Below are positions 30,267 to 48,308 of a stretch of 48,308 bases of DNA, piece after piece. Positions within the stretch are counted from its first letter, which is position 1. Every line of letters starts with the position of its first letter. Both the position numbers and the translations under genes were made by a program. Source of the DNA: Planctomycetaceae bacterium (GTDB lineage Bacteria; Planctomycetota; Planctomycetia; Pirellulales; UBA1268); contig CANFQO010000018.1 of NCBI GenBank assembly GCA_947449135.1, positions 1 to 48,308 on the forward strand. Direction: 5' to 3'. The notes under the pieces were generated by a model, which ran no database searches, was not told the origin of the DNA, and was given only the letters and a program-made list of their open reading frames with translations.

Positions 30267-31379
30267 CTACCTGCTCAACGCCCCCAAACGACGCCGATAA
30301 ACATAACGGGCCGCAAGCGCCGCAACGAGCCCTAAAAGCAAGAAAAGATTAGTCAACAGACTACGATTGCGAGCGTGACCTCCCCGCCTAGGAAATGAGC
30401 TAAGCACCTCATCTGAAATCCCGTAGTGGCTCGGACGAAAGAACGATGCATCGGGCTGATCAGTCGTGACAGAATCCACCTCGGTCGTATACTCGACTTC
30501 AACCTCGTCCTCTTCGTTGTGACGCCCCTGATACGTGATAGCCCGGACAAGAGACCGCCCGCCACGCTCCGATGGGCTAAATTTACGCTCCTCGCGCACC
30601 CACAATCGCTTTTCAGCAGTCATTGGAGCGCCAGGGATATTACTGCTAATCAGAAGTATATCAAACGCCTCCAGCACGGGAGGCTCCCCAAGATCAAATG
30701 TAAGGGATCCTCGGGGCAAGAATGCTGTTTCACCTACGACCGAGAATCGAACGTATATTTTCTCAGCATTTCCTTCTGTAGAGAGCTTACGTACTTCGTC
30801 GACTTGAAAACCTTTTGTGTCAGCAAGCTCCTTAAGTGTGAGAAAGAGCACGCTGTGATCGGCATCGAGCAACTGGTGCACATCGGCTTCTACACTTAGT
30901 CGATCGATTACGGTTCGAGCGATTGACGAACGCATAAACGACAATTGAAATGGATCGTCTTTCTCGGTCCGGGTAACATGAAATTCGTAATCGCTTGCCA
31001 AGACTTTCACCTTCTGCCACCGCTCAGGCCACACTTCATCCACAAGCACGCTGTCGGAATCTCTGCACACACTAAATTGGCGAATCAACTTCCCCCGAGG
31101 GTCCCGGAATGCTGCTTGGCCCGTCGTAAACGAACTGTCATGCTGCGTAAATAACTGCCGCAACTGAACAGGAATGTCTTCGCCAAAGCAGTTTTCTGGC
31201 CAGAGCGGCGGAACCAGCCACGCTAGACTAATAATGCAACTAACCGCGCACTTCCGTAGCCCACTCTCAGCGGGGCAACTGAAGGGCCGAATGAGTGACT
31301 TGTACTTGCTCGCGACATGTTGCAAAACACAATCATTCACAAGACGCACTGGGCAAATCGGCAGCGGCATTGTTTGCAT
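30267..31379 (-). CDS. Exported protein with C-terminal membrane anchor, LolA-like layout
   Basis: A 370-residue frame. A hydrophobic segment (CAVSCIISLAWLVPPLWP) near residues 44-61 looks like a signal peptide, so the true start may be downstream of the first ATG; none has a good ribosome binding site and the frame overlaps the upstream peptide gene by 43 bp. The middle is beta-rich (GKLIRQFSVCRDSDSVLVDE, EVEVEYTTEVDSV). The end has a single span (NLFLLLGLVAALAARYVYRRR). The order (signal, beta domain, C-terminal anchor) matches the proteins at 38111 and 39332, although sequence similarity is weak. Codon use is less GC-rich than in the genes before 30.1 kb. Function unknown. Confidence 0.6.
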   Translation of the reverse strand: MQTMPLPICPVRLVNDCVLQHVASKYKSLIRPFSCPAESGLRKCAVSCIISLAWLVPPLWPENCFGEDIPVQLRQLFTQHDSSFTTGQAAFRDPRGKLIRQFSVCRDSDSVLVDEVWPERWQKVKVLASDYEFHVTRTEKDDPFQLSFMRSSIARTVIDRLSVEADVHQLLDADHSVLFLTLKELADTKGFQVDEVRKLSTEGNAEKIYVRFSVVGETAFLPRGSLTFDLGEPPVLEAFDILLISSNIPGAPMTAEKRLWVREERKFSPSERGGRSLVRAITYQGRHNEEDEVEVEYTTEVDSVTTDQPDASFFRPSHYGISDEVLSSFPRRGGHARNRSLLTNLFLLLGLVAALAARYVYRRRLGALSR

Positions 31380-31552
31380 TCAAGTTTGTCCTGGTTAGGG
31401 CATAGGCCCGAGATCTTGGTGCCACATTCGCAAATCTTATTCAAGCATGCCGTTAGGTATATCTCATCAGCGAACAACGACGGACTTAATGAAACGACTA
31501 CCAATGTTCCGAAAAGTATCACGAACGCATTTGCGAGCATCAGTTTCGTCAT
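31337..31552 (-). CDS. Secreted Cys-rich peptide, 71 residues
   Basis: A short protein with a clear signal peptide (ANAFVILFGTLVVVSLSPSLFA) followed by a mature part of about 43 residues with eight cysteines (ACLNKICECG, LCPNQ, ECKQCRCRFAQC). AGGAGG lies ten bases before the ATG at 31552, which fixes the start and makes the gene believable. The Cys content fits disulfide-bonded extracellular peptides or a metal-binding peptide. It lies between a DUF1573 gene and a LolA-like gene on the same strand, so it is probably co-transcribed with them. Confidence 0.72.
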   Translation of the reverse strand: MTKLMLANAFVILFGTLVVVSLSPSLFADEIYLTACLNKICECGTKISGLCPNQDKLECKQCRCRFAQCVL

Positions 31553-31595
31553 GTCAAGCAGTCCTCCTAAGAAGTGTAAGTGTATAACCACGAGA

Positions 31596-32066
31596 TCACC
31601 TGATCCCGCAATACCGAACTGCGCACGGTAGCGCCGACTCTGTCGCATCCTCTAAAAACCAGACGACACGAACTTCAGAGGCGCCGAGCCTTTGCACGTG
31701 CAGCGTGACAGGCAGCGTTAGCTCCCCAAGCGCATCAATCACTTTAGGAAGCTCAGGACCAGCGACACAACCGCAGTCGGCGTTTGCACCGGCAATCCGA
31801 AGGTCTGACAGTCGCAGATTACGGAGGGTGAACATCGCGGTGGCTTTCGTTCCCACGCGGACAATGCCCAAGTCGACGACGCGTTGTTCCGCCACGGCAG
31901 GGGCGCCGCGAATCGCACGCACTACATTCTCGGCGGAGCCCAGCCAGGCGCGACCGAGCAGGATGATTATTCCCAGAAGAAAAGCGGCTAAAAGCACACT
32001 TGAGACCCAAGGTGAGCTCGAAGAGGGTAACCAAAGGCGATTAACCGCATCAGCACGATTTCGCAT
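31596..32066 (-). CDS. DUF1573 domain protein, membrane-anchored
   Basis: A 156-residue protein with one N-terminal span (SSVLLAAFLLGIIILLGRAWLG) and a periplasmic DUF1573 domain: VVDLGIVRVGTKATAMFTLRN, then ADCGCVAGP with the conserved CxC, and a VTLHVQRLG strand. DUF1573 is an Ig-like fold common in Bacteroidetes and planctomycetes. The ATG at 32066 has AGGGG upstream. The next gene on the same strand is the Cys-rich peptide, 43 bp away. Likely role: binding or holding partner proteins at the envelope. Confidence 0.8.
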   Translation of the reverse strand: MRNRADAVNRLWLPSSSSPWVSSVLLAAFLLGIIILLGRAWLGSAENVVRAIRGAPAVAEQRVVDLGIVRVGTKATAMFTLRNLRLSDLRIAGANADCGCVAGPELPKVIDALGELTLPVTLHVQRLGASEVRVVWFLEDATESALPCAVRYCGIR

Positions 32067-34873: not shown

Positions 34874-35491
34874 ATGTTGAAACTCCATGCCGGCGTCTCG
34901 AAGAAAGTCGGTCTACCCGGCTTCTCCAGCGCCTCGGCCTCCTGCACCATCGAGGCTGAACTCGACGGCTCCCTGCTCCATGACCGCGAGGGCTTTCAGA
35001 TCGTCGTGCAGCGGGCGTACAAAAGTTGCGAGAAGGCCGTCGAAGACCAGATCGCCCGGCTGCTTGTCCAAGGAAATCCGACACCAAATAGCCCCGTTTG
35101 TGCTCCAGACGTCTCAGAGCACCCCCAGACCACAAACGGCCCGCAGACGCGCAGCCAGAGCCCTTCTCGCGCATCCCAGCCGGTCACGCAAGAAGTCATC
35201 GAGGTCCGTACGAGCCCGGCTATCAGTGGCGCCCGGATCACGACCACGAGTAACAGCCTCCCCAGTCCTCGTCCCGCCACGGCTTCACAGGTTCGTGCTC
35301 TTCGGGCCATCGCCGCTCGCCGGAAGATCGACCTCGTGGGCCTGCTGCGTGACAGGTTCGGCCTCCAGACAGCAGACGAACTAGGCATTCGGCAGGCGTC
35401 CAACCTTATCGATGAGTTGAAGGGAGACGAGCCTGCTGCCACTCCTGCGAACGGCACCGAGGCCTATGCGACGACTGGAGGTGCCCGATGA
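34874..35491 (+). CDS. Protein with C-terminal UBA/TEKQ-like helical domain, upstream of nuclease
   Basis: A 205-residue protein. It starts MLKLHAGVSKKVGLPGFSSA with a beta-rich domain of about 75 residues, followed by a Ser/Pro/Thr linker (85-150). The last 50 residues read ASQVRALRAIAARRKIDLVG then LGIRQASNLIDELKG, the layout of small helical domains that end phage and plasmid recombination proteins. AGGA lies eleven bases before the ATG at 34874. It overlaps the nuclease gene by ATGA, so the two likely act together, for example in ssDNA annealing or end processing. Its first codons are found again, broken, at 44940. Confidence 0.65.
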   Translation: MLKLHAGVSKKVGLPGFSSASASCTIEAELDGSLLHDREGFQIVVQRAYKSCEKAVEDQIARLLVQGNPTPNSPVCAPDVSEHPQTTNGPQTRSQSPSRASQPVTQEVIEVRTSPAISGARITTTSNSLPSPRPATASQVRALRAIAARRKIDLVGLLRDRFGLQTADELGIRQASNLIDELKGDEPAATPANGTEAYATTGGAR

Positions 35492-36342
35492 TTGCCAACG
35501 CACCCCAGTTGCCCGTCATCATGCCCGCCAGCACCAATCCCGCCAACGAGATCGCCAAGAAACTCACCGGCCGGGACTACGTTTCATGGTCGGCCATCAG
35601 CACGTTCCGAACCTGCCCGTTGAAATACAAGTTCAGGTACATCGACGGCCTGCCCGAGGAGTCTGTATCGGCGGCGTTGATCTTCGGCACCGGGATTCAC
35701 TCCGCCGTCGAGCAGCACTTCCAAGCGATCCTGTCCGGGGAGCCCAAGCCCGACCTCGATGCCCTACTGTTCACCTACCGGTCCGCATGGCTGCCACACG
35801 ATCCAGACGCGATCTCTTTCGGCAGTTCGGAGACTCGGGTCTCGCTGGATGCTCTGGCTGGAAAGATGCTCACGGCGTTCCTGAATAGCCCAGCGGCGAG
35901 CGTTCAGGGGCGGGTGCTGGGCGTCGAGGAGGAGATTCGGGGCATGCTGGTCGAGGGCGTGCCGGATTTGTACGGGAGGGTCGACCTGCTAACGGAAGAC
36001 TCGGATTCGCTGGTGGTTACAGATATCAAAACCAGTCGAGGGAAGTGGAGTCAGGAGCAGGTCGAAGACTCCGGGGAGCAGTTGTTGCTGTATTCACACC
36101 TCGCCTCGGAGATCAGCCCGGGGAAAAAGATCGCGACCCGGTTCTTGGTCCTGACGAAGACCAAGGAGCCGGTCATCGAGGAGCACGTTCGCGAGGTCGA
36201 GCCCGGGAACGTGAAACGCACCTTGGCGGGCGTGGAGCGTGTCTGGCGGGCTATCGCGAGCGAGAACTTCTACCCGGCACCTTCGGCGGTCGGCTGTGCT
36301 TCGTGCGGCTACCGCCAGCCGTGCGCCGAGTGGCGAGGGTAG
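35488..36342 (+). CDS. PD-(D/E)XK nuclease with Fe-S-type Cys set (RecB/Cas4-like)
   Basis: A 284-residue RecB-like nuclease. The first motif is SWSAISTFRTCPLKYKFRYI with one Cys, then FGTGIHSAVEQHF. The catalytic residues are Asp166 in YGRVDLL and Asp179-x-Lys181 in VTDIKTSRGKW, followed by a QLLLYSHL helix with the conserved Gln. The C-terminus has CASCGYRQPC, so with the Cys of the first motif there are four ligands for a 4Fe-4S cluster as in AddB and Cas4. No helicase and no Cas genes are nearby. It acts on DNA ends, probably with the upstream partner in recombination of the element. Confidence 0.87.
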   Translation: MIANAPQLPVIMPASTNPANEIAKKLTGRDYVSWSAISTFRTCPLKYKFRYIDGLPEESVSAALIFGTGIHSAVEQHFQAILSGEPKPDLDALLFTYRSAWLPHDPDAISFGSSETRVSLDALAGKMLTAFLNSPAASVQGRVLGVEEEIRGMLVEGVPDLYGRVDLLTEDSDSLVVTDIKTSRGKWSQEQVEDSGEQLLLYSHLASEISPGKKIATRFLVLTKTKEPVIEEHVREVEPGNVKRTLAGVERVWRAIASENFYPAPSAVGCASCGYRQPCAEWRG

Positions 36343-36657: not shown

Positions 36658-36948
36658 CTAGTAGCTAAAGCTGAATCGCGCAGACACTACCATTGCCTGC
36701 GCCGTCGAATCATCCACCGAGTGCGAGTCGATATCTGTTTTCGCTCCGATGGTGCATTCGTAAAGAACAGCCGGTGCCTTCAGGGCATCTTCCAAACACT
36801 TCCCACGCCACTCATCTACAGGCTCCCAAGCCGTGCAACACCAATCCGGAACGCACTCGGCCAACATTTTACTCGCCACGAGCACCACCACGCGGCTCAG
36901 TGCAGTACGCCAATTGTATCCTGAAAAACAGCCGACGCACCTCTTCAC
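36658..36948 (-). CDS. Small Cys-rich protein, probably exported
   Basis: A 96-residue frame that begins with GTG at 36948, overlapping the stop of the upstream gene (GTGA), so it would be translated by coupling. It has a hydrophobic stretch (TALSRVVVLVASKMLA) followed by ECVPDWCCTAWEP and further Cys (KCLEDA, YECTIG); seven cysteines in all. This fits the other Cys-rich secreted products of the region, but no ribosome binding site is visible and the signal peptide is weak. It is a candidate rather than a certain gene. Confidence 0.45.
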   Translation of the reverse strand: MKRCVGCFSGYNWRTALSRVVVLVASKMLAECVPDWCCTAWEPVDEWRGKCLEDALKAPAVLYECTIGAKTDIDSHSVDDSTAQAMVVSARFSFSY

Positions 36949-37889
36949 ATCGCTACTTTGCCAAAAACTTGGTCCTTTTCACAATCAGATGCGGCTATCG
37001 CCACGGTTCTCTTAACAAGAAAGTCAAGCGCCCTCGTTGCTTCCGGGTGCGGGCTGATCGCAATCACTCGCCCCTTGCCGAATCGGCCGGCAATGATGGC
37101 GGGAGTATCGATCATCGTGCCTCGTTGAAACTCGAACGACCATACTTCGTTACGGAAGGTTGCCCATGTGACGTAATCGGGCAGGTCCTGCCTTCCGGCC
37201 GGAACAAGAATAGGTCCGCCACTATAGTGAACCGGTATCACTTCCGGCACTCCTTCGAGCCCTTCCCTGCCAACCGAAGAAAGTTGGAGATCTACTACAC
37301 CGGAACGGCGTGCCGAGAATGACACTGCGCCCCACCCGGGGATCTCTCTATCACCCGAGAGAGATCTCGCGTCGATGACTCCCAAGGCCTCGACATTACC
37401 GCTAATAGCAAGAAATGCCCCGGCACATATCCCGACATACCCACCACCACGTCGAAGAAACTCGCGCACTGCGTCCCGCCCTTCGGCTCCAAGAGCCTCG
37501 CCCTGCTGCCGAGCCACTCCGCCGGGAAACACGAGAACATCGTATTCACGCAACGCACCGCTGCGTATTACAACTGGACGAACTGACCTCACATCGAAAC
37601 TGCGCTCCGACCTCAAGACTTCTATCAGCCGATTGGTGCTCGCGACATCCCCGTTCTCGAACGCCACGACGCCCACGGTCACGTGCGGCACTTTTAAAAT
37701 TGCGTACCGACGCCGCCAATCTTGCCCCGCGACGAAAAATCCGATCACGCAAGACAACAGCGTCGCATAAGCGATTGTGAACTTACCCCAATCCAGCTTG
37801 GATTGAGACGATAGCATCGCGGGGACCGAATTCAACAACCGCTTTGGCGAGAATCCTCGAAGAATAGTTCGCACCAGCCCCTTGCTCAT
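36945..37889 (-). CDS. BPL_N/class I amidotransferase-like membrane protein
   Basis: A 314-residue protein with one N-terminal span (FTIAYATLLSCVIGFFVAG, residues 37-55) and an exported or cytoplasmic domain of the BPL_N/GATase-like type: VGVVAFENGDVASTN, YDVLVFPGGVARQQGEALG, then GGGYVGICAGAFLAISG with the nucleophile-elbow Cys. The end has GRFGKGRVIAISPHPEA, matching the His-containing motif of the family. AGGA lies about 13 bases before the ATG at 37889. Such proteins occur in planctomycetes with unknown function; hydrolysis of an amide or a peptidase-like role is possible. It is part of the minus-strand cluster. Confidence 0.78.
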   Translation of the reverse strand: MSKGLVRTILRGFSPKRLLNSVPAMLSSQSKLDWGKFTIAYATLLSCVIGFFVAGQDWRRRYAILKVPHVTVGVVAFENGDVASTNRLIEVLRSERSFDVRSVRPVVIRSGALREYDVLVFPGGVARQQGEALGAEGRDAVREFLRRGGGYVGICAGAFLAISGNVEALGVIDARSLSGDREIPGWGAVSFSARRSGVVDLQLSSVGREGLEGVPEVIPVHYSGGPILVPAGRQDLPDYVTWATFRNEVWSFEFQRGTMIDTPAIIAGRFGKGRVIAISPHPEATRALDFLVKRTVAIAASDCEKDQVFGKVAM

Positions 37890-38110
37890 GGCATGCGATT
37901 CCTGGAACCGTACTCACAGAAGTAGCTCAGAATCGCCGCCACGCGCGGCTTACATCATCCACGCGATGCTGACAACCCCGCCGATCTAGGCGAGTGACTT
38001 GCACAGCGTTTGATAGAACCGACATAATCACACTAGCGTCCGCCACATCACACTGATAGCAAGTCGCACGCAGCGGCAAAAAGCCTACACCTCAAAACCG
38101 TGAGGCCCCA

Positions 38111-39256
38111 TCACGCGACTCGCAGCCATCGCACACAAAACCGCAGCACGAGATAGACGTTAGCGCCGATTAATGCAACCGCCGGGGCGATCAGAACGAC
38201 AGTATCGCCAGACGTCTTACTGGAGACCTGCGGCACAGGTCCACCAAACGATTGCAGAACATATCGGGCTAGCGCCACGGTGTTGTCAAGCAGATCAATC
38301 CCTCCTGGCACCTGGTAAACTTTTCCGCTATCACGATCCTGAATCAACGTCCCCGGAGGAGGAGTAAAATCAAACGCACAGTTATCTACCTCGTTTACTC
38401 TGACTTCCTCAATCACAATATCGTAACCGCGCGACTCCGACAGATCGGCACCGGCATTCCGCAACTCCAGTCTAGTTCGTAGCGGAATCCAGAATGCCTG
38501 CCTGCCGGCCACATCAGCTTCGTACCTCCTGAATTCAGACGACAATTGGCGGCGTAACATTACTCCCGAAGCAGGGTCGAACGTCTCTCGCTTGCGTATA
38601 GCATAGCCAATTTGTGGATCAAGCCACAGGCGATCCAACGCCGGCGACTCCAACACGCAACACCTGTGCCCATCAACGACTTCAAGCTCTGGATTCAGGA
38701 CATAGTCGGACAGTTCAAGAGCGAATCGCAGGGGCATCGCCGCCTCTCTAACGTCAGGATTCACAGGCGAATCATCATTCTCCGGCCACCAGCCCATGCA
38801 GTCGAGAATCGGATCAAGTCGCACCTTCCACATATAAATCGACGACGCATTATTCCGAGAGGTCTCATACATCCTACTTGCAACAAAAAACACATCGAGC
38901 GTCTCGCCATCAAAAAACTGCATTGTGTGATTTACGTCCACGCTCGGTGGCTGGCGATCCGTGAAATGGACGTTCTCTCGGTAGCGGTGGCGGTTCTTAA
39001 GAATTAGATGGTGACGGACGTAGACGTAGGGATCGAATGGGTTGCCACTCGCAGCGATAATGCAGTATCGTACGTCCAGACTTTCAACAAGATTGTGACG
39101 GGCCAGCACCGAACTTCGTATTTCAGCAACATCGCCTGCTTGGCCTGAACTTAGGGCCTCGCCTCCGCGCACACAGTCTTGGCGCATTCCCACAAAGACT
39201 GCCAACCCCCAAACAAATGCCAGCCCTGTTTTCGCGGCATTGCAGATGTCCACCAT
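38111..39256 (-). CDS. Exported LolA/RseB-like protein with C-terminal anchor (B)
   Basis: A 381-residue protein. GGAG lies six bases before the ATG at 39256, and a signal peptide follows (TGLAFVWGLAVFVGMRQDC). The body is beta-rich with motifs shared with the next gene upstream: LWLDPQIGYAIRKRE, FWIPLRTRLEL, and FDFTPPPGTLIQDRDSGKVY. These are typical of planctomycete proteins with a LolA/RseB-like fold. A C-terminal span (VLIAPAVALIGANVYLVL) anchors it. It lies directly behind its paralogue (75-bp gap), so the pair may work as a unit in holding a lipidated or hydrophobic ligand; that is inference. Confidence 0.7.
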   Translation of the reverse strand: MVDICNAAKTGLAFVWGLAVFVGMRQDCVRGGEALSSGQAGDVAEIRSSVLARHNLVESLDVRYCIIAASGNPFDPYVYVRHHLILKNRHRYRENVHFTDRQPPSVDVNHTMQFFDGETLDVFFVASRMYETSRNNASSIYMWKVRLDPILDCMGWWPENDDSPVNPDVREAAMPLRFALELSDYVLNPELEVVDGHRCCVLESPALDRLWLDPQIGYAIRKRETFDPASGVMLRRQLSSEFRRYEADVAGRQAFWIPLRTRLELRNAGADLSESRGYDIVIEEVRVNEVDNCAFDFTPPPGTLIQDRDSGKVYQVPGGIDLLDNTVALARYVLQSFGGPVPQVSSKTSGDTVVLIAPAVALIGANVYLVLRFCVRWLRVA

Positions 39257-39331
39257 TGTCTGCTCCGATCGCCTGGCGTTACATGAAGCTACAATGAACC
39301 CTGCGGACAATTAGAAGCGGTCGACACGCCT

Positions 39332-40543
39332 TTACTGCTTTTTCCAACGACGCCGTGTGACTATCGCTATTAATGTAAAGAACAGCGCGACGCTCATCCA
39401 AAACGCTATGCGGGATGTTATGCCCGGCGATCTGTTGAGCGATTCAACAAGGCGATCCAAGTCCTCCTTGCCTGCCGGCACGTAATAACCGTCGGCGACC
39501 TTGACGCCCCTAGTATCCACCTGCCCATTGCGGAAGTCGAATACAAGCGTTCCGGCTGGGATCTGCAGGGAGAATAGCTCATCAGGCACATCGTTGGCAT
39601 TGATTTCACTGACATCATAGTCGTATGCCACAATCGGGCTATTGTGAATCTCTGCCGGAGCAGAAGGTGGTGCGGCCATTTCATACACACCCTTTTGAGG
39701 AAGCCACACGCCCTTGCATACCTCGGCGAACTTACTGCAGGTGGATCGACCTTGCAGCAGCTTTGTGTTCGAATAATAACTCTCCTGCTTCCGGACGGCA
39801 TACCCGAGAGAGGAATCACACCAAAGTACTGTGTCTTCCCCCACCTCAATGACAATGCACAAGGCGCCGTCGACGGCCTCTGTTCCTGACCTCATTCGGC
39901 AGCGGCCACTGGCGATAGCGCCAGACACACGGTTCAAAGCGCGATCATTGTTGCTATTGACGACATCCGGCAAAGCTCGAAACACGAGTCCTGTATAAGA
40001 CGGGTTGAAATAGCTCGCATCACTTTCTGTGTGGGATAGATCGGAAATACCAAGGATTGAGGCTGTATCTCCGCCCACTCCTCTCTTGCGCAGAACTGTG
40101 CCGTCAAAGGCATAGATGGCGTTGGCTGGGACGTCGTGGCCCTTGGGCTGACTATTTGCCTTATTTTCGTTGAAATCCAGTTTCGTTGCGTTCTTGTCCG
40201 CAAGGCTCGATGTTCTCTCAAAACTGTAGTAGCGTTTGTTTCCCTTAAACGCAAAGACATGGACTTCATCGGAAAGGAACCGTAGCTGAAGGTATTGTTG
40301 GACATCAGACGCCGTTCCCAGCAGGCGGGAAGAGAGGCGATATTTGACATACAGGCTTTTCAGCGAATCCTCTTGGCCTCTATAAGAATCAGCCACGCTA
40401 TCCAAATCAGGAACGTCCGCCTCAGCGATAGGCAATGATACTGCCCATAAAAAAAGGCATGCAGCAGTGAGCAGGCCTCGCAACAAGACGTTTGGCAAAC
40501 GCATTAACGACGCTCTGGTTGACGTGACAGTGTGTAAAATCAT
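39332..40543 (-). CDS. Exported LolA/RseB-like protein with C-terminal anchor (A)
   Basis: A 403-residue protein if it starts at the ATG at 40543; an ATG at 40504, with AGAG eight bases upstream, is also possible and gives a tighter signal peptide (VLLRGLLTAACLFLWAVSLP). Shared motifs with the protein at 38111 are LWCDSSLGYAVRKQE, VWLPQKGVYEM and LQIPAGTLVFDFRNGQV, so the two arose by duplication. A helix YVPAGKEDLDRLVESLNR precedes the C-terminal span (IAFWMSVALFFTLIAIVTRRR). Likely periplasmic face of the membrane. Function unknown. Confidence 0.7.
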   Translation of the reverse strand: MILHTVTSTRASLMRLPNVLLRGLLTAACLFLWAVSLPIAEADVPDLDSVADSYRGQEDSLKSLYVKYRLSSRLLGTASDVQQYLQLRFLSDEVHVFAFKGNKRYYSFERTSSLADKNATKLDFNENKANSQPKGHDVPANAIYAFDGTVLRKRGVGGDTASILGISDLSHTESDASYFNPSYTGLVFRALPDVVNSNNDRALNRVSGAIASGRCRMRSGTEAVDGALCIVIEVGEDTVLWCDSSLGYAVRKQESYYSNTKLLQGRSTCSKFAEVCKGVWLPQKGVYEMAAPPSAPAEIHNSPIVAYDYDVSEINANDVPDELFSLQIPAGTLVFDFRNGQVDTRGVKVADGYYVPAGKEDLDRLVESLNRSPGITSRIAFWMSVALFFTLIAIVTRRRWKKQ

Positions 40544-40753
40544 GATTTGCAGCCAGCCCTTTTCTCGGTGTATTGGAGATTGGGGGATGAAGTAAATCCG
40601 CGTACTGGTGCCTTTTTGGCCCCCTCCCCCGCCCGTCTGGACTTGTGTTGAGCGGACCCTGCGCTTGCTCATGTCGGATCGAGTAACGTTAGGCCACGGG
40701 ACCTGAGGCAGATGCAGGTCCGCTGGCAGTGGAACGGGAAGCGATGAACGTGC

Positions 40754-41512
40754 CTAACCGGCGGTTGTGGGAGCGCATCTTGAACGCCGTCGAACTAGTT
40801 CGGACCAAACCGAATAAGTCACGTTCGCGGTGCCGATTGCTATAGCAACAGCATAGAGCCACCTGAGCCCAGCGAAACGGCTATTTTGAATCAGCAGATA
40901 ACCACGCCATTCTCGAAAGAATTCCTCGGATGGCATGAAATTAAGCGCCGCACTGGTGCCATCGACAATCCATACTCCGTCGTGCTGCACTGATAGAATT
41001 ACAACGAAATGTCCGCCCTCCGCCTTATCAACCTCAAGCAGAGCAATCGCGGGTAGTGGGCATTGTCGGAGCCTTTCTGGAGTGACCATTACCACCTCAG
41101 AGGGAACTCCCTGGCTCTGCATGAAGTCTTGCATTTCTCCAATGCTTTGCCCAACGCTGCGAACTGGGAATGCCGCAGCAGTCACATCATAAGATACCGG
41201 ACGCCCAAGAAGCCTAAGGAGCACATAAACGGAATTTATTCCGCAACGATTTCCCACTCGCCAAATTTCGCGATCGCTGTCATCGGAGTCGGCGCTCTGA
41301 TCGTCCTGCTCCGGCATCGTCGAGAGGCCATCGTCTGGACTTGCGAATGCCAAGGGGCACAGTCTTGGAAACCCGCAAGCGATGGTTAGTGCAACGACAC
41401 ACCACAAGCAACGACACCACTTCGCTCCTCTTTGTCCGAAGAGACGAGAGCAACTCCCGCGCGGAGTAACTGATTTCAGCCGCCCTGTAATCGCGTGTTG
41501 CCAAGTTTCCAA
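40754..41512 (-). CDS. Exported C39-like cysteine peptidase with C-terminal span
   Basis: A 252-residue protein. After a hydrophobic signal (CLWCVVALTIACGFPRLC) and an acidic linker comes a papain-like C39 domain: Cys90 in NRCGINSVYVLLRLLG, His168 in AEGGHFVVI and Asp184 in WIVDGTSA, the full catalytic set. The C-terminal part has a membrane span (WLYAVAIAIGTANVTYSVW). C39 peptidases process double-Gly leader peptides in bacteriocin export, but here there is no ABC transporter domain. The start is a TTG at 41512 with GGAG nine bases upstream. It lies next to a secreted Cys-rich peptide gene, which may be its substrate. Confidence 0.8.
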   Translation of the reverse strand: METWQHAITGRLKSVTPRGSCSRLFGQRGAKWCRCLWCVVALTIACGFPRLCPLAFASPDDGLSTMPEQDDQSADSDDSDREIWRVGNRCGINSVYVLLRLLGRPVSYDVTAAAFPVRSVGQSIGEMQDFMQSQGVPSEVVMVTPERLRQCPLPAIALLEVDKAEGGHFVVILSVQHDGVWIVDGTSAALNFMPSEEFFREWRGYLLIQNSRFAGLRWLYAVAIAIGTANVTYSVWSELVRRRSRCAPTTAG

Positions 41513-41724
41513 AACAGTTTACTCCATCCTCAGGGCGGAAGTCATCCGAACGCTGTTCTTCAGTAGCCAATAGGATCCCAAGTCGCGTCATTACACACGT
41601 GCACTGCGTTTTACCATCTGCATGTCAGTGCAGGGGCAGCCACATTCGGCAGGCGGGCATTCCAGCAGTGGGGAATCAGACGCGAGTACGGGAGCAACAC
41701 CGCGCGAAGCCTACTGCCGATTGC

Positions 41725-42087
41725 CTAGCCCCCCTGATTCGGGTAGCCAAGAAACTGAACGCTTCCGCAAGGGATTGAGCACTCATAACAAGTCTGCTTC
41801 AGTCCAGGCGCACAAAGGGTGCCGGTTCCGGGAATGACAGGATCGATAATTGTCTCGGATCGCGGACATCGGAGCTGTATGCCTCCGGGGCCGGTCTTGC
41901 TATATCCAGTGCAACCTTGCCATTCGATCTTAAACCGTGCATCGTTAGCCGCGCCGAACAGAAGTGCGGCATCCTGCTTGCCGACGATATTCCTTGCCCA
42001 CGGTGCCCCCGCCTCGGTTGATGACAATCCGAGAACGGCCACGAACAGCAGAGCTAACCCGGAGAATAGAACGATTCCGTTTTTCAT
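41725..42087 (-). CDS. Secreted Cys-containing peptide, 120 residues
   Basis: A small protein with a clear signal peptide (IVLFSGLALLFVAVLGLSS, cut near AGA) and a mature part of about 92 residues with six cysteines: QGCTGYS, LRCPRS, TLCAPG and QTCYECSIPCG. GGAG lies seven bases before the ATG at 42087, which fixes the start. The end is PNQGG, so a Gly-Gly pair is at the C-terminus. It sits between the toroid and C39 peptidase genes in the same orientation. No family is recognised; by position it is the candidate substrate or product of the cluster. Confidence 0.72.
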   Translation of the reverse strand: MKNGIVLFSGLALLFVAVLGLSSTEAGAPWARNIVGKQDAALLFGAANDARFKIEWQGCTGYSKTGPGGIQLRCPRSETIIDPVIPGTGTLCAPGLKQTCYECSIPCGSVQFLGYPNQGG

Positions 42088-42198
42088 GACCTGACTCCAC
42101 GTTAAAAGGACGGGAAAAGTATCGACATCAAGGACTTTATCGCACTCCAAGAAGCTGCGGCGAGGGCCCGCTCGTGCATCCCACTTGATTCTCTTAAG

Positions 42199-43428
42199 TT
42201 ACTCCGATGGGGCAACGGCATTATTCGACAATGTTACTAGGGCATGCGCCGCGTGACAATAGGGGCAGTAGTGTTCTTGTATGGCGTCTTGACTTGCGCA
42301 CAACAAGCTCTCTTGCAAGAACTCGGCTGCCCGTTGAAAGACTTCGTCTGAAGGCAGCATGTCCGGCAAGACAAGGTACATCCAGTCAACGTGATGCCCG
42401 GTGACGTGAACGCGAAGATGCCGCTGGTTCGGCGAATCACTATTTCGAACTGAATACGCTGGAGAACTGTACGCGTGCCATCCAACCGGCCAGCTGCCGT
42501 CTGCGAGTTGCGAATCTGTAAGCCGAGTTACATGCTTACCTAGGTGCTGGCGAATCATGGCTCGCCGTAACTCCGATAAAACAGGACGTTCGAAATCTGC
42601 GCGAAGCAAAACAGCCAACGCCTCAAGTAGGTGAATCCCGTGGCAGGCCAAACCATCAGAGTTAAATTGCCGCCGCATTAGTTCATCAGCCATTTGGTCA
42701 AAGTGAAATCGATGACCAAACTTATTTACCCATGTTCTCTGGGGCGGTAAGTACATTGCCAAAGCGATACACACCCATTCGATTTGCGGATCGTTCGTGT
42801 TGTAGTTGGCCACAGTATCCTGAAGTATGTCACGGACGGCGAACGTGCCCGTGTCCGTCGTCAATTCTTGGGTGAGGGGAATTCCGTGTTTTGCGAATTC
42901 ACTCAGAAGCTGCCCCCAATGAGATTGCCGCTCAAGCTGAAAGCGACTGTCGCGCGGGTCAACTAGTCGGTTATGGAGCCCATATTGCGTTTCCACGAAG
43001 ATCGGGCTGCCAAAGTACGCCGTTGCGAGTTCGTTGCTGTAGATCACTTCCTTGAGCGAGGGGAGGCGATCAGCCCTCGAAGGCCAAGGGATCTCCATAT
43101 CCAAGCCGAGCACCATGGCTGCGTGCATCAGCCCCCCCAACGGCGATCTTTGCCGAGGCATTACCCGCTGGACAGCCATCAAGGTCTGTTCGGCATCCAA
43201 GCACACCGACACCGACTTGAGTGGACGGACGGACACGGGATAGGACTGCACGCTCGATTGGAGCACCTCATGAGCGGAGGAGCTATAGCCAGGTGCGGAG
43301 GGATCGAATTGGTCGCCCTTACTCGACAATCTCAAATGCACAAATGCTGCCAAGGATGTCGCAATACAGACTAGCGACAGGAGGCGAATCGCTTTGTCGT
43401 CACGGATCGATTGTGTTGCTCTTTCCAT
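42199..43428 (-). CDS. Alpha/alpha-toroid protein (terpene-cyclase/prenyltransferase-like repeats)
   Basis: A 409-residue protein with an N-terminal span (LLSLVCIATSLAAFVHLRL) and a mostly helical body. The segment LTDSQLADGSWPVGWHAY near residues 312-329 is a QxxDGSW-type repeat of the squalene-cyclase/prenyltransferase toroid. Other repeats are weaker, and a second helical half has HLLEALAVLLRADFERP and EFLQESLLCAS. The DxDD acid of cyclases is not seen, so it may be a binding scaffold rather than an enzyme. It ends in a short Cys/His-rich segment (EHYCPYCHAAHAL). It is the first gene of the minus-strand cluster. Confidence 0.6.
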   Translation of the reverse strand: MERATQSIRDDKAIRLLSLVCIATSLAAFVHLRLSSKGDQFDPSAPGYSSSAHEVLQSSVQSYPVSVRPLKSVSVCLDAEQTLMAVQRVMPRQRSPLGGLMHAAMVLGLDMEIPWPSRADRLPSLKEVIYSNELATAYFGSPIFVETQYGLHNRLVDPRDSRFQLERQSHWGQLLSEFAKHGIPLTQELTTDTGTFAVRDILQDTVANYNTNDPQIEWVCIALAMYLPPQRTWVNKFGHRFHFDQMADELMRRQFNSDGLACHGIHLLEALAVLLRADFERPVLSELRRAMIRQHLGKHVTRLTDSQLADGSWPVGWHAYSSPAYSVRNSDSPNQRHLRVHVTGHHVDWMYLVLPDMLPSDEVFQRAAEFLQESLLCASQDAIQEHYCPYCHAAHALVTLSNNAVAPSE

Positions 43429-44327: not shown

Positions 44328-44857
44328 ATGGCACTCGGGAAACGACGTCGGGAGCGGCAACTCGAGGCCTTCGTCTCGGCCTCTGACCTGCCGCAGTCTC
44401 CCGGGCATCCGTTCTAAACAGCTTAGCACCGGCTCCTCGCCGAAAACGACTTCCACTCCTTTGCCGACGCTCTGTACGCTCCGTTTTCCGGGGGGGTACG
44501 GGGCGTCCTTCGATTCCGCGGAGTGTCTCCTTTCGGATAACGTTCGTGGGGTAGTTCGAGAGCCTGCCGTCGCACCGCAGCATCGCGTGGCGATTTGCCG
44601 ACAGCCGGTCACTGGCGGAGTTTCTCGTACTGGGTACGGCGGAAGATATCCCCGACCAATCGTCGATCGGCAAGTCGCACAAGCGCCTGCTGAAGGACGT
44701 GTTCGACGAGGTCTTTCGCTTCATCCTTCGTTTGGCGGCCCGGAAGGGCCTACTCTGGGGCGACAAGCTCGGCATTGACTTCACAACAATCCAGGCGACC
44801 GCCTCGATAAAGTCGGCCATCCGCAGAGCCCCCAGGAAAGGGCAGGAAGGACTACAC
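44328..44857 (+). pseudogene. IS1182-like transposase, broken
   Basis: An ATG at 44328 opens ALGKRRRERQLEAFVSASDL then a stop at 44415. Beyond several frame changes the DDE domain resumes in another frame with LPSHRSIAWRFADSRSLAEF, EDIPDQSSIGKSHKRLLKDV and DKLGIDFTTIQATASIK. This is the N-terminal half of an IS1182/DUF772-type transposase; the catalytic C-terminal half is missing. It is dead. Confidence 0.75.
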
Positions 44858-44937
44858 GAAGAAGCGCCCCAAGAAGGCTGGCCTCGAGGCCAGTTCCGCC
44901 TTCCAAACCCATTCCCCAACCCAAGAAGGAAATACCA

Positions 44938-44968
44938 CCATGCTGAAACTCCATGCTGGCGTCATACG
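44938..44968 (+). pseudogene. Fragment of the gene copied from 34874
   Basis: AAGGAA and an ATG at 44940 are followed by codons for MLKLHAGV, which is the exact start of the protein at 34874, with only a few base changes. After the GTC codon the sequence changes abruptly to DNA of an IS91-like transposase on the other strand. So a second copy of this gene once stood here and was cut by an insertion or deletion. Confidence 0.7.
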
Positions 44969-45325
44969 CCTGCCATTACAGGACGGGCAGACACCGCGGC
45001 CCTTGCAGGAGAACGCGACGACGAACCCTGTGCCGCAGCCGGTGCACAGTGCAAGGGCGAATCCGAAGCACAGAATGCCGCCTTTGGGATAGTCGCGAAG
45101 TTCCTCCTCGACGGAGCCCGGCACGGGCCGCTCGGCCGCTTCCCGCCACGCGAGCCAGCTGTCCAGGTTCTCGGACACGATCGCTTGGAGCGGCGTCTTC
45201 TCGGGGCGGCGCCGCCCGTAACGGCGAGTGGCACGACGAGCCCACGGCGTGCCGCCGGATGGCCCGGCGACAGGTCGGGCTGCTCGTGACGGCGTGCAGA
45301 ACGTGACCACCAAAGCGGTTCGCAT
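44963..45325 (-). pseudogene. IS91-family transposase, N-terminal fragment
   Basis: The frame reads YGRRRPEKTPLQAIVSENLD, then CFGFALALCTGCGTGFVVAF and SCKGRGVCPSCNGRRM, the zinc-binding N-terminal domain of IS91 transposases with its CxxC and CxxC pairs. It ends abruptly after GRRM at 44963, where the fragment of the 34874-type gene begins. The relaxase-like HUH domain is absent, so this is a remnant. Confidence 0.8.
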
Positions 45326-45573
45326 CCCGGCGGTGTCCCGCTAGGAATGACGAGCGCGGCGGCCTTCGGGGGCAAAAGCGATCCCAAAGATGGCCACGTC
45401 GGCGGCGACGTAATGCCGCTGATGGCAGGCATCCCATCCAGGGGCAGTCGCCATCTCGGCAAAACCTCCATATGTCGATGTCACGATCGCTACAAATCCC
45501 GCCACATTCTTGAGCCAAAAAATGGCTACGTCAGAGGCGGGGAATCCGTCATCTTTCGAAGCTCTGCGTGTGA
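45326..45573. other. Gap with short imperfect repeats
   Basis: The strings AGATGGCCACGTCGGCGG and AAATGGCTACGTCAGAGG about 120 bp apart look like diverged copies, and ACGTCG/CGACGT gives a small dyad. No gene is seen. Confidence 0.35.
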
Positions 45574-46659
45574 TCACTCCCATTGAAGAACAGTCCGTAG
45601 GCCCTGAAACAGTCGATGGCTCATTCCCATTCGATGACAGCGGCCGACAACAACTCCAGGCGGTACGCCGATTCTCTTAGCAAGGCCGACTACGTCCGCT
45701 TTTGAGCAGTGTGGAAGAAGTGCCGCCAGTTCAGGGTCGAAGCGAGGCGGAATCAGGATATATCGGGCGAACTCATCCGCCTCTTGTTCCGCTCTCGCGT
45801 TTTCCGCGGATTCTCCATCCTCAACGAAGACCTGCTTTTTGCCGTGCTTCAAGATGTGTGCTGCCTCATGAAAAAAGGAAAAGAGGACTTGGTCCACCTT
45901 CTTGAACTTCAGGCTTAGCTGCAAAATTGCTTCATCTTTGCACGCCCACCGGGTCGCACCGCTCACGCTTGCGCCTGGGATCTCTTTAACGAATACAACT
46001 GCCACTCCCGCGCTGCGGCATTGTTCAATCATGGCCTGGTGCCAAACTTTCACCGGCTGATCGATGACGCGACGAATTTGGCCAATCGCCACTCGGAACT
46101 TCTTCTCGTCGTAGGGCTCGCAATCAACGCGCTGCGCTTCGATCTCGCCCATTCGTAGCCAGGTTGCCACCGCAACGGGGTGCTTCTTCGCAACACTGCC
46201 TCCTCGGAAATGAACGGTGGGTTTCACATGGGCTTCCCGCCAAGCGGCCACACTACTCACCCGGAAAAACTGTAGAGCCTGACGAACTCGCACGGACTTG
46301 TCCGCGCTGTCTTCCACATAACCGCGGGCGACGAGCTCCTTCCAGGGGATCTCTTTCAGCCACTCCACGTCGGCCGCAAGGCGTGACGATGCATGCCGGC
46401 GTGCTAGCGACTCACGGTATGCCAGCTCGCGGTTATTCCAGAAGGAAGCCGATGCCCCAAGCACCAACTCAAGCCGACGAGCGGTTTCGAGGGTAATGGG
46501 CGCGTCGCCGGAAATGATCTGGCTGATCGTCTTCTCGGCCATGTCGGTACGAATCGCAAGGTCGGCCTGCGCCATGCCTCGCTCTTCAAGTAGCTCTCGA
46601 AGCGTGTCGCCGGGGGGGACGGCGTAATCCGGTTGAAATGCGTGAGTTGTGGCCGCCAT
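45574..46659 (-). CDS. higA: HigA-type antitoxin fused to an ImmA/IrrE metallopeptidase
   Basis: A 361-residue protein. Residues about 15-75 are a Cro/C1-type HTH of the HigA/VapI group (DTLRELLEERGMAQADLAIR, KTISQIISGDAPITLETARR). After a linker, an ImmA/IrrE domain follows with zinc motif HEAAHILKHG and a downstream EQEADEFARYILIPP with the third ligand Glu. The start at 46659 is fixed by AGAGGA ten bases upstream. It follows higB by 14 bp. HigA-ImmA fusions act as antitoxin and repressor, and the peptidase part can degrade a partner. It probably represses the promoter at 47025-47062. Confidence 0.88.
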   Translation of the reverse strand: MAATTHAFQPDYAVPPGDTLRELLEERGMAQADLAIRTDMAEKTISQIISGDAPITLETARRLELVLGASASFWNNRELAYRESLARRHASSRLAADVEWLKEIPWKELVARGYVEDSADKSVRVRQALQFFRVSSVAAWREAHVKPTVHFRGGSVAKKHPVAVATWLRMGEIEAQRVDCEPYDEKKFRVAIGQIRRVIDQPVKVWHQAMIEQCRSAGVAVVFVKEIPGASVSGATRWACKDEAILQLSLKFKKVDQVLFSFFHEAAHILKHGKKQVFVEDGESAENARAEQEADEFARYILIPPRFDPELAALLPHCSKADVVGLAKRIGVPPGVVVGRCHRMGMSHRLFQGLRTVLQWE

Positions 46660-46673
46660 GGCTGCTGTTTCCT

Positions 46674-47006
46674 CTAGTGGTAGTCGCCGATGGCGACGAT
46701 CTCGATTTTGGTGACTTTGTCCCAATTCAAAGTGCCAGAGTCGTTCAGGGGAAGCGGGTCGTTCGCCGATCGAAACACGAGTCGGTCCGGATGCACAAGG
46801 TCGAGCGCACAATGCCAACGCAGGTCCGCTGTCAATTGGTGGCATCGGCCGGGAAGGTTCCGAAACTCCCCCAGGTGGTTGGCTGCCACCAAGTCGCTGA
46901 GGCGAGTTTGAATGAGTTTTGCCATCCGCGGCCCATAATCGCCGCGTAGTTTGCTTGCAGAGTTGCAGAGCTTTTGGAGCTTCCCCGTGGAAAACGTCAC
47001 TTCCAT
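46674..47006 (-). CDS. higB: HigB-type (RelE superfamily) toxin
   Basis: A 110-residue protein of the HigB/RelE fold: a helical N-terminus (MEVTFSTGKLQKLCNSASKL) and LGEFRNLPGRCHQLTADLRW, then DLVHPDRLVFRSAND and KIEIVAIGDYH. It would cleave mRNA at the ribosome. The order toxin first, then the larger antitoxin with the short gap, is the higBA order. The ATG at 47006 has AAGGG seven bases upstream; a TTG at 47021 behind GGAG is an alternative. The promoter and operator lie directly upstream. Confidence 0.85.
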   Translation of the reverse strand: MEVTFSTGKLQKLCNSASKLRGDYGPRMAKLIQTRLSDLVAANHLGEFRNLPGRCHQLTADLRWHCALDLVHPDRLVFRSANDPLPLNDSGTLNWDKVTKIEIVAIGDYH

Positions 47007-47024
47007 AGGTCGCCCTTCCAACTC

Positions 47025-47062
47025 CTTTACGTGTATGGTAAAGAGAATTGTCGGCGTGTCAA
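47025..47062 (-). promoter_or_regulatory. Promoter and operator of higBA
   Basis: On the minus strand TTGACA (47062-47057) and TACCAT (47040-47035) are spaced by 16 bases, a good sigma-70 pair. The -10 box lies inside the perfect inverted repeat CTTTAC-7-GTAAAG (47025-47043), where a HigA dimer could bind and block transcription. Higher AT content than its surroundings supports this. Confidence 0.72.
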
Positions 47063-47564
47063 TGGGAAGTCTTTACGTTATTGGTTAAGATGAACGGCGG
47101 CAAGGCATGGGGCGTCGGGGTAGACTTCGCTGGCTTTGTCCATCTCGGCGGCGCAGCGGTGCCGCGATTGATCCGTGCGACTCACGTTTCAGAAGATCTG
47201 GACGGATAGCCCTGGCAATGTCACCTCCGCAACCGTTTCTCGGCTGATGAGCGGCTCGGGAGCTGCGTGCCCCGTCTCCCGGTCCGGAACAGGTGGCACT
47301 CAAAACGGCCCCCCCCCCCCCGGGAGTGGCTGTTTTCTGGCGTCGGCGCGGAGTCTCTCCCGTCCGGCCCCATGGCGGCTTCGGTGATGACTCGCGTCCG
47401 GAACGGCTCACAGGCTATGGATGTCCATCGCGGGCAGATCGTCTACCGTCGCTTGAAAGACATCGCGATCGTCATGGACCTGGACGAGTTCTCCCCAGTC
47501 GGTGGGCGGGCCTCGAGCGAGAGCGAGCGGCGGCGGCACCAAAAACCCACCACCGCCCGCGCCC
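47063..47564. other. Gap with a 13-base C tract
   Basis: A run of 13 C (47309-47321) is the main feature, followed by a dense GC-rich region with a run of GAGCGAG-type repeats (about 47510-47530). No gene is supported. A small fragment encoding IVYRRLKDIAIVMDLDEF (about 47435-47488) has no start. Confidence 0.35.
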
Positions 47565-47924
47565 TCACTCCCTCAACCCCTGCCCCCTCGCCCAACTGCG
47601 AGCGTCCAGATCGAGCTGCGCGTGATCAATGCCCTCAAGGCTCCGCTGGCACTCGAAGATCAGCTCGTTCAGCACCCTCACGCCCGCATCCAAGTCCGCG
47701 TGTCTGATCCCGTCGGCGTGCCCGGGGTCGAACTCATAGATCTGCGGCATACGTCTGGCGTTTGTCGTGAGTTTGGCCAAGAACTCCAAGTAGGGCGACG
47801 CGAATTCTTTCTTCTTGCGGCCCGAGTGGTATTTGGGGTCGCCGAACTTGTTCCGTCGGGCGTTCCTGAGCATGGCCAAAAGCTCCCGGCCTGCTGGATC
47901 GTTGAATGAACTCGCAGATGACAT
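47565..47924 (-). CDS. Hypothetical protein of 119 residues
   Basis: The ATG at 47924 has AGGAGG five bases upstream, so the gene is believable. The protein is charged and helical (GRELLAMLRNARRNKFGDPK, then EFASPYLEFLAKLTTNARR, later DLDAGVRVLNELIFECQRS). A basic stretch HSGRKKKEFA lies near residue 37. No family is recognised. It lies between the toxin-antitoxin pair and the integrase remnant, on the same strand as both. Confidence 0.6.
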   Translation of the reverse strand: MSSASSFNDPAGRELLAMLRNARRNKFGDPKYHSGRKKKEFASPYLEFLAKLTTNARRMPQIYEFDPGHADGIRHADLDAGVRVLNELIFECQRSLEGIDHAQLDLDARSWARGQGLRE

Positions 47925-48101
47925 GGCATCCTCCTTGATGCGTTGGGTGTGCCGGGCTTCTTGGGCCGCGGCAGGAATCCGTACTTTCTGGCGTTTCACC
48001 TGTTCGCGGACGACGAAAACCATGAACTTTCGTGTCAGTTTCGGCGTCGAGCTAGCCACTATTTTAGCGCATCGAGGCACCTGATTCGGCATGGTTTCTC
48101 C

Positions 48102-48308
48102 TCACACGCCTCCGAAACTACAGGGAACCACGGGCCAGACCATGTGTGTTGCGAAATGCTGCGCCCGCCGCCAGGAATCAACATGCCGCGTGAGTGATTC
48201 CACGACCGCAGCGGGCATCACCGTCACCCGATCCTTGTTCCCCTTCGCCTCGCGGATCATCAGCTCCCGACGAGAGAAATCCACGTCCTTCACCCGCAGC
48301 CGCAAAGC
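48102..48308 (-). pseudogene. Integron-type tyrosine recombinase, 3' part, truncated
   Basis: The frame continues past the right edge. It begins ALRLRVKDVDFSRRELMIRE and goes on AKGNKDRVTVMPAAVVESL, the beta-hairpin region of IntI-type integrases with its catalytic Lys in GNKDR. The usual sequence continues through the H-x-x-R and Tyr motifs, but here similarity stops after RHVDSWRRAQH and the frame ends 18 codons later. So the part visible lacks the catalytic box. Upstream residues, including the first catalytic Arg, lie outside the window. If it is an integron integrase, attI and the cassettes would be on the right, outside. Confidence 0.75.

What the first reader, a model, noticed from the sequence alone, without database searches (positions are those of the whole stretch)
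36658..43428. Undescribed exported-protein cluster with a C39-like peptidase and Cys-rich peptides
Seven minus-strand genes in a row encode a toroid protein, a secreted 6-Cys peptide, an exported C39-like peptidase with intact Cys/His/Asp, two LolA/RseB-like anchored paralogues, a BPL_N/amidotransferase-like membrane protein and a 7-Cys small protein. Nearly all are exported or membrane-bound, they lie in AT-richer DNA inside a mobile island, and no ABC exporter or regulator is present. The layout (small Cys peptide plus leader-type peptidase plus anchored binding proteins) suggests peptide maturation or presentation at the cell envelope. The function is inference; the gene content is seen.
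Basis: partly seen in the sequence, partly recalled or inferred. Interest (0 to 1): 0.78.

Follow-up and report, generated by a model that had tools for sequence, protein, structure and literature searches.

The report
Exported peptide with its own protease
This gene cluster, found again and again in planctomycete bacteria, appears to send a small cysteine-rich peptide out of the cell and cut it to its final form there with a membrane-anchored protease that in other bacteria works inside the cell as part of a transporter.

Summary
Six minus-strand genes encode an alpha/alpha-toroid, a secreted 6-Cys peptide, an exported C39 peptidase with intact Cys/His/Asp, two anchored LolA-fold proteins and a BPL_N protein. 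This is not a chance grouping. Standalone C39 loci from other Planctomycetota carry LolA-like neighbours in 30 of 56 and a toroid in 19 of 56. Controls: 10 C39-ABC transporters have neither, and 20 other toroid genes have no C39 or LolA. C39 and LolA-like proteins are fused in six loci. The strict motif occurs in 29 of 129 motif-blind candidate ORFs near standalone C39s and in 0 of 35 near controls. Best reading: Sec exports a pre-pro-peptide, and a membrane-anchored C39 then removes the GG leader outside the cytoplasm. The LolA-like and toroid proteins probably chaperone or modify the product. Closest precedents are FapD (Pseudomonas) and NapP (Neisseria). I found no description of this planctomycete system. 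Cleavage is inferred; the peptide's final role is unknown.

The parts
42199..43428 (-). Alpha/alpha-toroid protein, 409 aa, N-terminal signal/TM; conserved H170, D244, C262, H266, Q307, W317, TGH345xxEW, H392
   Evidence: 9-way alignment; AF2 model and fold match. Cluster homologues in L016, L017, L018, L020, L078, L081, L082, L086, L119, L120, L123, L125 and most of L128-L142.
41725..42087 (-). Precursor of a secreted Cys-rich peptide: Sec signal, GG-type leader, then a 74-aa core with 6 Cys (open frame extends to TTG 42150; ATG 42087 is the likely start)
41950..41985 (-). GG-type leader site VGKQDAALLFGA (V-12, D-8, A-7, L-4, G-2, A-1), predicted C39 cleavage after A46 of the 120-aa precursor
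   Evidence: Motif in register with L016 VSAAEAATILGG, L018 VNSIEASMLKGG, L020 VDLSEMSHIRGG, L118 VSDSEASALIGG, L119 VSDDEAAKLVGG.
40754..41512 (-). Exported, C-terminally membrane-anchored C39 cysteine peptidase, 252 aa, catalytic Cys90, His168, Asp184
   Evidence: PF03412 E 3e-14; triad conserved; no ABC domain.
39332..40672 (-). LolA-like protein 1: signal, LolA-like domain, C-terminal TM and basic tail
   Evidence: Paralogue of LolA-like 2; LolA-like profile E 3e-95 (training member).
38111..39310 (-). LolA-like protein 2: signal, LolA fold, C-terminal TM and basic tail
   Evidence: AF2 model matches LolA superfamily, Z 14.0 to 4z48, 13.8 to 3bk5, 13.6 to 9tp6.
36945..37889 (-). BPL_N / class I amidotransferase-like protein with N-terminal TM; accessory member
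   Evidence: PF09825 E 1.4e-15. A 45%-identical homologue lies at the same place in the Schlesneria cluster L078/L118, there fused to a PMT-like glycosyltransferase. Not seen in the other clusters.
36658..36948 (-). 96-aa '7-Cys' ORF; probably not a gene and not part of the system
   Evidence: No homologue; GTG start; 4-nt overlap with the BPL_N stop.

Best explanation
This is an extracytoplasmic peptide-maturation cassette. The precursor carries two N-terminal signals in series: a Sec signal peptide and, directly behind it, a double-glycine leader. Step 1 (inferred): Sec exports it and signal peptidase removes the first signal. Step 2 (inferred from the leader in exact register and from the conserved Cys/His/Asp): the C39 peptidase, held in the inner membrane by a C-terminal TM with its catalytic domain outside the cytoplasm, cuts after G-G or G-A and frees a disulfide-capable core of about 74 aa. 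Step 3 (inferred from gene neighbourhood, fold and C39-LolA fusions): the anchored LolA-like proteins hold the hydrophobic or unfolded precursor or product near the peptidase, like a periplasmic chaperone. Step 4 (weakest): the exported toroid, with its invariant Asp/Cys/His set, binds or modifies the peptide. Mature cores vary more than leaders between some paralogues, which fits secreted effector or antagonistic peptides; that final role is a guess. Shown: gene content, order, conservation, motif, triad and folds.
For: Co-occurrence: standalone C39 loci in the three search sets number 56; 30 have a LolA-like neighbour and 19 a toroid. Ten C39-ABC transporters have neither, and 20 other planctomycete toroid genes have no C39 or LolA. 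C39-LolA fusions in L119, L120, L128, L132, L135 and L140. GG leader: strict motif in 29 of 129 motif-blind small secreted Cys-rich ORFs, in 26 of 64 standalone-C39 loci, against 0 of 27 and 0 of 8 ORFs in controls (Fisher p 7e-4 by ORF, 9e-6 by locus); shuffled peptides give a mean of 0.21 against 24 observed. Position -11, which the pattern did not constrain, is Ser/Thr in 14 of 27, as in known GG leaders. Triad conserved. The same order including BPL_N occurs in Schlesneria, and the two toroids are sisters in the tree. Toroid and LolA folds. Leaders 63-95% identical and cores 38-51% identical in L120, L091 and L019.
Against: No cleavage has been shown. The window's own leader is degenerate (GA instead of GG, no Ser at -11). 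In more than half of the standalone-C39 loci the strict motif was not found; some of these peptides have a near-match (GQ, GV, or shifted), and some loci are cut by contig ends. The leader/core contrast is not universal: in L095 and L129 cores are as similar as leaders. Signal peptides and topology were judged by hydropathy and the positive-inside rule, not by a dedicated predictor. The periplasm is oxidising, so a cysteine peptidase must keep its thiol reduced. No outer-membrane exit was looked for.
Confidence: 0.72

Rival explanations
1. A Fap/Nap-like secretion module: the C39 activates assembly or outer-membrane secretion of a structural surface peptide, and the Cys-rich peptide is an envelope or matrix component rather than a free effector.
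For: FapD is a periplasmic C39 needed for amyloid secretion (PMC5557850); NapP with NapF is proposed to process GG peptides in the periplasm (PMC11798529). The best NCBIfam match of the window C39 is FapD, though weak (29.6 bits against a cut-off of 330).
Against: No FapF-like channel is evident among the cluster genes (no dedicated search was made). The peptides are Cys-rich, not Asn/Gln repeats. Partners (toroid, LolA-like) are different.
Confidence: 0.25
2. The LolA-like proteins are immunity or receptor proteins of a toxin-like peptide system: producers keep the anchored proteins to bind and neutralise their own peptide.
For: Mostly one or two divergent LolA-like copies per cluster, some fused to the peptidase; patchy distribution and absence from the window's own genus and family; variable cores in some paralogue sets.
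Against: No killing or toxin domain known; fusion to the protease argues for a processing role; no test of antagonism.
Confidence: 0.25
3. The C39 does general envelope proteolysis or acts as a chaperone, and the GG-like sites are coincidental.
For: Dead second C39-like domains exist in L016, L018 and L082.
Against: The first domain keeps the triad almost everywhere; the GG leader is strongly enriched with residues in register.
Confidence: 0.06
4. Chance grouping of unrelated cargo genes in an island.
For: AT-richer DNA near transposase and integrase fragments.
Against: The same genes, often in the same order, recur across families of Planctomycetota.
Confidence: 0.01

Closest known systems
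FapD, periplasmic C39 peptidase of the Pseudomonas Fap amyloid system (PMC5557850, PMC6173800)
   Same: Sec-exported standalone C39 peptidase active outside the cytoplasm; catalytic Cys needed in the Fap case
   Different: Fap substrates lack a canonical GG leader and the FapD substrate was reported as unknown; Fap has amyloid subunits and the FapF channel; here small Cys-rich GG-leader peptides, toroid and anchored LolA-like partners. NCBIfam FapD score far below cut-off.
Neisseria nap island: NapA-C peptides with GG motif, NapP C39, NapF channel (PMC11798529)
   Same: Standalone C39 plus small GG-motif peptides, cleavage proposed in the periplasm
   Different: Nap peptides are cationic and microcin-like with a FapF-type channel; no toroid, LolA-like or C39-LolA fusion is mentioned in the passages read; the main text has no mention of a signal peptide or Sec.
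PCAT bacteriocin exporters (C39 domain plus ABC transporter) and class II bacteriocins/microcins
   Same: C39 fold and triad; GG leader consensus L/V-12, S-11, E/D-8, L-4, G-2, G-1 (established knowledge)
   Different: No ABC domain in the window C39; the leader sits behind a Sec signal, so cleavage would follow translocation by another route.
LolA/LolB/RseB superfamily
   Same: Fold (Z up to 14)
   Different: Inner-membrane-anchored by a C-terminal TM, no Pfam LolA match for the window proteins, encoded beside a peptidase.
Terpene-cyclase / GH105 / transcobalamin-type alpha/alpha toroids
   Same: Fold; weak profile match to squalene-hopene cyclase repeats
   Different: Short exported single-toroid protein with its own invariant Asp/Cys/His pattern; no catalytic motif transferred.

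Membership tests
Peptidase C39 (PF03412) | Pfam score above gathering threshold | tested here: met
   53.4 bits against 22
Peptidase C39 (PF03412) | Catalytic Cys, His and Asp | tested here: met
   Cys90, His168, Asp184 conserved across homologues
PCAT (C39-ABC exporter) | C39 domain fused to ABC transporter | tested here: not met
   252-aa protein with only a C39 match; no ABC gene in the cluster
FapD equivalog (NF058616) | Score above the equivalog cut-off | tested here: not met
   29.6 bits against 330
GG-leader (double-glycine) precursor peptides | Leader with hydrophobic -12, acidic -8, hydrophobic -4, G-2, G/A/S-1 | tested here: met
   VGKQDAALLFGA in the window; enrichment over controls
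GG-leader (double-glycine) precursor peptides | Cleavage after the GG site by C39 | not testable with these tools
   Needs biochemistry or peptide mass spectrometry
Class II bacteriocin / microcin | Export by a cognate PCAT, without Sec | tested here: not met
   No PCAT in the cluster; hydrophobic Sec-type signal ahead of the leader
Class II bacteriocin / microcin | Antimicrobial activity | not testable with these tools
   No assay
Neisseria nap island type | FapF/NapF-type outer-membrane channel beside the C39 | not tested
   No dedicated profile search for FapF was run
LolA superfamily | LolA fold | tested here: met
   Z 13.6-14.0 to 4z48, 3bk5, 9tp6, model pLDDT 66
LolA superfamily | Curated Pfam LolA match | tested here: not met
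   No family at E 1 for either window protein; one homologue (L123) E 0.23 to LolA_like
Lanthionine cyclase (LanC) toroids | LanC fold and zinc ligands | tested here: inconclusive
   Not among the listed fold matches; conserved Cys/His set is only suggestive
BPL_N (PF09825) | Pfam score above gathering threshold | tested here: met
   57.4 bits against 24.2

The most novel reading that the evidence does not exclude
An entirely extracytoplasmic ribosomal-peptide pathway: after Sec export, a GG-leader Cys-rich peptide is bound by anchored LolA-fold proteins, modified by a periplasmic Cys/His-bearing toroid enzyme (in some clusters perhaps glycosylated by the neighbouring PMT-like transferase) and released by an anchored C39, giving diversifying effector peptides with no dedicated ABC exporter.
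Probability: 0.2. Interest if true: 0.9.

Novelty: new variant of a known kind. Interest (0 to 1): 0.72.

Why it matters
C39 peptidases and double-glycine leaders are textbook parts of cytoplasmic, ABC-coupled bacteriocin export. The substrate of the one well-studied periplasmic C39 (FapD) was reported as unknown, and that class as uncharacterised (PMC5557850, PMC6173800). Here dozens of exported C39s sit beside Sec-exported peptides with canonical GG leaders, so the question 'do periplasmic C39 enzymes read GG leaders?' becomes directly testable, including in a cultured isolate (Singulisphaera acidiphila DSM 18658). It also points to a large unexplored set of secreted Cys-rich peptides in Planctomycetota, and gives first functional contexts to an orphan toroid family and to anchored LolA-like proteins.

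Tried and rejected
Single-protein searches: the window C39 has no close relative in 392 phylum genomes, only distant ones; it has no PDB sequence match. A five-way toroid profile was too divergent for the collection scan; a two-sequence profile worked. Rejected: 'toroid as marker of the system', because other toroid paralogues are common in Planctomycetia and 20 such loci have no C39 or LolA. Rejected: the 7-Cys ORF. Rejected: plasmid or phage origin as shown fact; no toroid match in plasmid records or viral contigs. LanC was considered for the toroid because both are alpha/alpha toroids with Cys/His; it was not among the listed fold matches, which does not exclude it. The window's second cassette at 30-32 kb was considered as a C39-less variant, but its large protein did not match the LolA profile. 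Literature searches for NVEALA peptides and for planctomycete GG/C39/LolA systems found no description; only open-licence PMC papers were searched.
Full report
OBSERVATION. The minus strand from 43428 down to 36945 holds six genes: toroid (42199-43428), Cys-rich peptide (best start ATG 42087, stop at 41725), C39 peptidase (40754-41512), two LolA-like genes (39332-40672 and 38111-39310) and a BPL_N protein (36945-37889). The region is AT-richer than most of the first 20 kb of the window. Pfam recognises only the C39 (53.4 bits, cut-off 22) and BPL_N (57.4 bits, cut-off 24.2); NCBIfam gives no match above a cut-off. The seventh ORF (36658-36948, '7-Cys') has no homologue anywhere in the data gathered and I drop it.

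FOLDS. An AlphaFold2 model of the toroid from nine homologues is good (pLDDT 82.8, pTM 0.80). Foldseek gives no significant PDB hit, but the structural aligner places it among alpha/alpha toroids: GH105, drimenyl-diphosphate synthase, squalene-hopene cyclase, transcobalamin (Z 13-16). Its invariant residues include H170, D244, C262, H266, Q307, W317, H345 and H392, which looks like an active or metal site, but no function follows from that. C39 and both LolA-like proteins end in a hydrophobic segment followed by basic residues, which by the positive-inside rule puts their domains outside the cytoplasm (inference).

RELATIVES. A search of 392 phylum genomes with the C39 found only distant matches, yet four of these (L016, L017, L018, L020) lay beside relatives of the window's toroid and LolA-like proteins, and a small secreted Cys-rich ORF sat in each. 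Widening to the family of those genomes (40 neighbourhoods), to the GTDB species collection by toroid pattern, and to the window's own order gave many more. In the three C39-driven sets there are 56 standalone-C39 loci: 30 with a LolA-like gene nearby and 19 with a toroid; 16 have both. The comparison sets are clean: 10 C39-ABC transporters with no LolA or toroid, and 20 other toroid genes with no C39 or LolA. A toroid tree puts the non-cluster toroids in their own groups and makes the window toroid sister to that of a Schlesneria MAG cluster (L078/L118), which has the same order and a BPL_N homologue (45% identity, E 2e-46) at the same place, there fused to a PMT-like glycosyltransferase. Such glycosyltransferases lie beside a number of other standalone C39 loci. 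C39 and LolA-like domains are fused in one protein in L119 (Singulisphaera acidiphila DSM 18658), L120, L128, L132, L135 and L140, strong evidence that they work together.

THE GG LEADER. Just after the Sec-type signal comes a double-glycine leader in the register known for C39 substrates: L016 VSAAEAATILGG, L018 VNSIEASMLKGG, L020 VDLSEMSHIRGG, L119 VSDDEAAKLVGG, L092 FTIDDLKELRGG, L107 LTNTEMQRVLGG, and in the window VGKQDAALLFGA. To test this without circularity I selected candidate ORFs only by size, hydrophobic N-terminus, Cys count and neighbourhood. The strict motif is in 24 of 69 against a shuffle mean of 0.21 (maximum 3 in 500; a few overlapping loci are counted twice in that run). 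In a non-redundant rerun on both strands it is in 29 of 129 candidates from 26 of 64 standalone-C39 loci, and in 0 of 27 and 0 of 8 candidates from toroid-only and C39-ABC loci (Fisher p 7e-4 by ORF and 9e-6 by locus). Position -11, free in the pattern, is Ser or Thr in 14 of 27, as in classical GG leaders. In one locus (L023) a GG peptide (LSRQQMQAIRGG) sits at the C-terminus of the C39 ORF itself. In L120, L091 and L019 the leaders of paralogous peptides are more alike than their cores; in L095 and L129 they are not.

THE PEPTIDASE. Cys90, His168 and Asp184 are kept in nearly every first C39 domain (a few have Glu for Asp; some ORFs are truncated). Second C39-like domains in L016 and L018, and a separate neighbour in L082, have lost them, reminiscent of non-catalytic C39-like domains of some type I systems, which tether substrate (established knowledge).

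MECHANISM. Shown: conserved gene set, fusions, GG leader behind a Sec-type signal, intact triad, folds. Inferred: Sec export and signal-peptidase cleavage; then C39 cleavage after GG/GA outside the cytoplasm; LolA-like proteins as substrate-holding chaperones; toroid as binding protein or modifying enzyme. The peptide's final role (antagonism, signalling, surface component) is not determined; patchy occurrence and core variation in some paralogue sets lean towards an effector peptide. Absence of the C39 from the sampled genomes of the window's genus and family, plus an IS91-type fragment and a partial integrase, suggest horizontal acquisition.

COMPARISON. FapD is a periplasmic C39 whose substrate was reported as unknown and whose partners lack canonical GG leaders (PMC5557850; PMC6173800). 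The Neisseria nap island pairs GG peptides with a C39 and a FapF-type channel, with cleavage proposed in the periplasm (PMC11798529). The planctomycete system shares the idea of an exported C39 but differs in its partners and in the explicit Sec-plus-GG design. I found no description of it in the searchable literature. I therefore rate it a new variant of a known kind.

LIMITS. Signal peptides were judged by hydropathy only. HMMs were built from a few cluster members. Some neighbourhoods are cut by contig ends. The window's leader is a weaker example than most (GA, no Ser at -11). Nothing here demonstrates cleavage or activity.

Noticed in passing
window 30267-32066 (-): A second AT-richer cassette: DUF1573 protein (31596-32066), a small secreted 8-Cys peptide without a GG leader (about 31337-31551) and an anchored protein (30267-31379) of unknown family; no C39. 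DUF1573 also sits beside C39/GG-peptide cluster L021 (Pfam) and, by eye, L022.
   Followed up: partly
L019 and L091 (G389, G299): C39-TM-rhodanese fusion (rhodanese confirmed by Pfam in L019) with a DoxX/MauE-like gene in L019 (annotated by eye) and two or three paralogous 6-Cys peptides (..EQVAAMSVKGG..) and a LolA-like gene: hints at thiol/disulfide chemistry in a sister variant.
   Followed up: partly
L023:9366-10712: TPR-like repeats, C39 domain and a GG-leader Cys-rich peptide (LSRQQMQAIRGGTVNYEC...) in one open reading frame, a possible self-processing precursor.
   Followed up: no
L016, L018, L082: Catalytically dead C39-like domain fused to, or next to, the active C39 (triad replaced by GSN, DSE, DYT).
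   Followed up: partly
L058-L077: A widespread planctomycete family of exported alpha/alpha-toroid proteins (often 2-4 per genome) with conserved Cys/His residues and no assigned function.
   Followed up: partly
L078, L081, L082, L086, L104, L125, L129, L130, L132, L133, L137: PMT/ArnT-like membrane glycosyltransferase recurring beside the C39 clusters; fused to BPL_N in L078.
   Followed up: partly
window 44852-48305 (-): IS91-type transposase zinc-domain fragment (44852-45325), HigA-like antitoxin fused to an M78 peptidase domain with a possible HigB-like partner (45574-47021), and a partial tyrosine integrase (48102-48305) at the contig end.
   Followed up: partly
window 35488-36342 (+): PD-(D/E)XK nuclease related to Cas4 (PF12705 E 1e-30; TIGR00372 just below cut-off), no CRISPR genes recognised next to it.
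   Followed up: no
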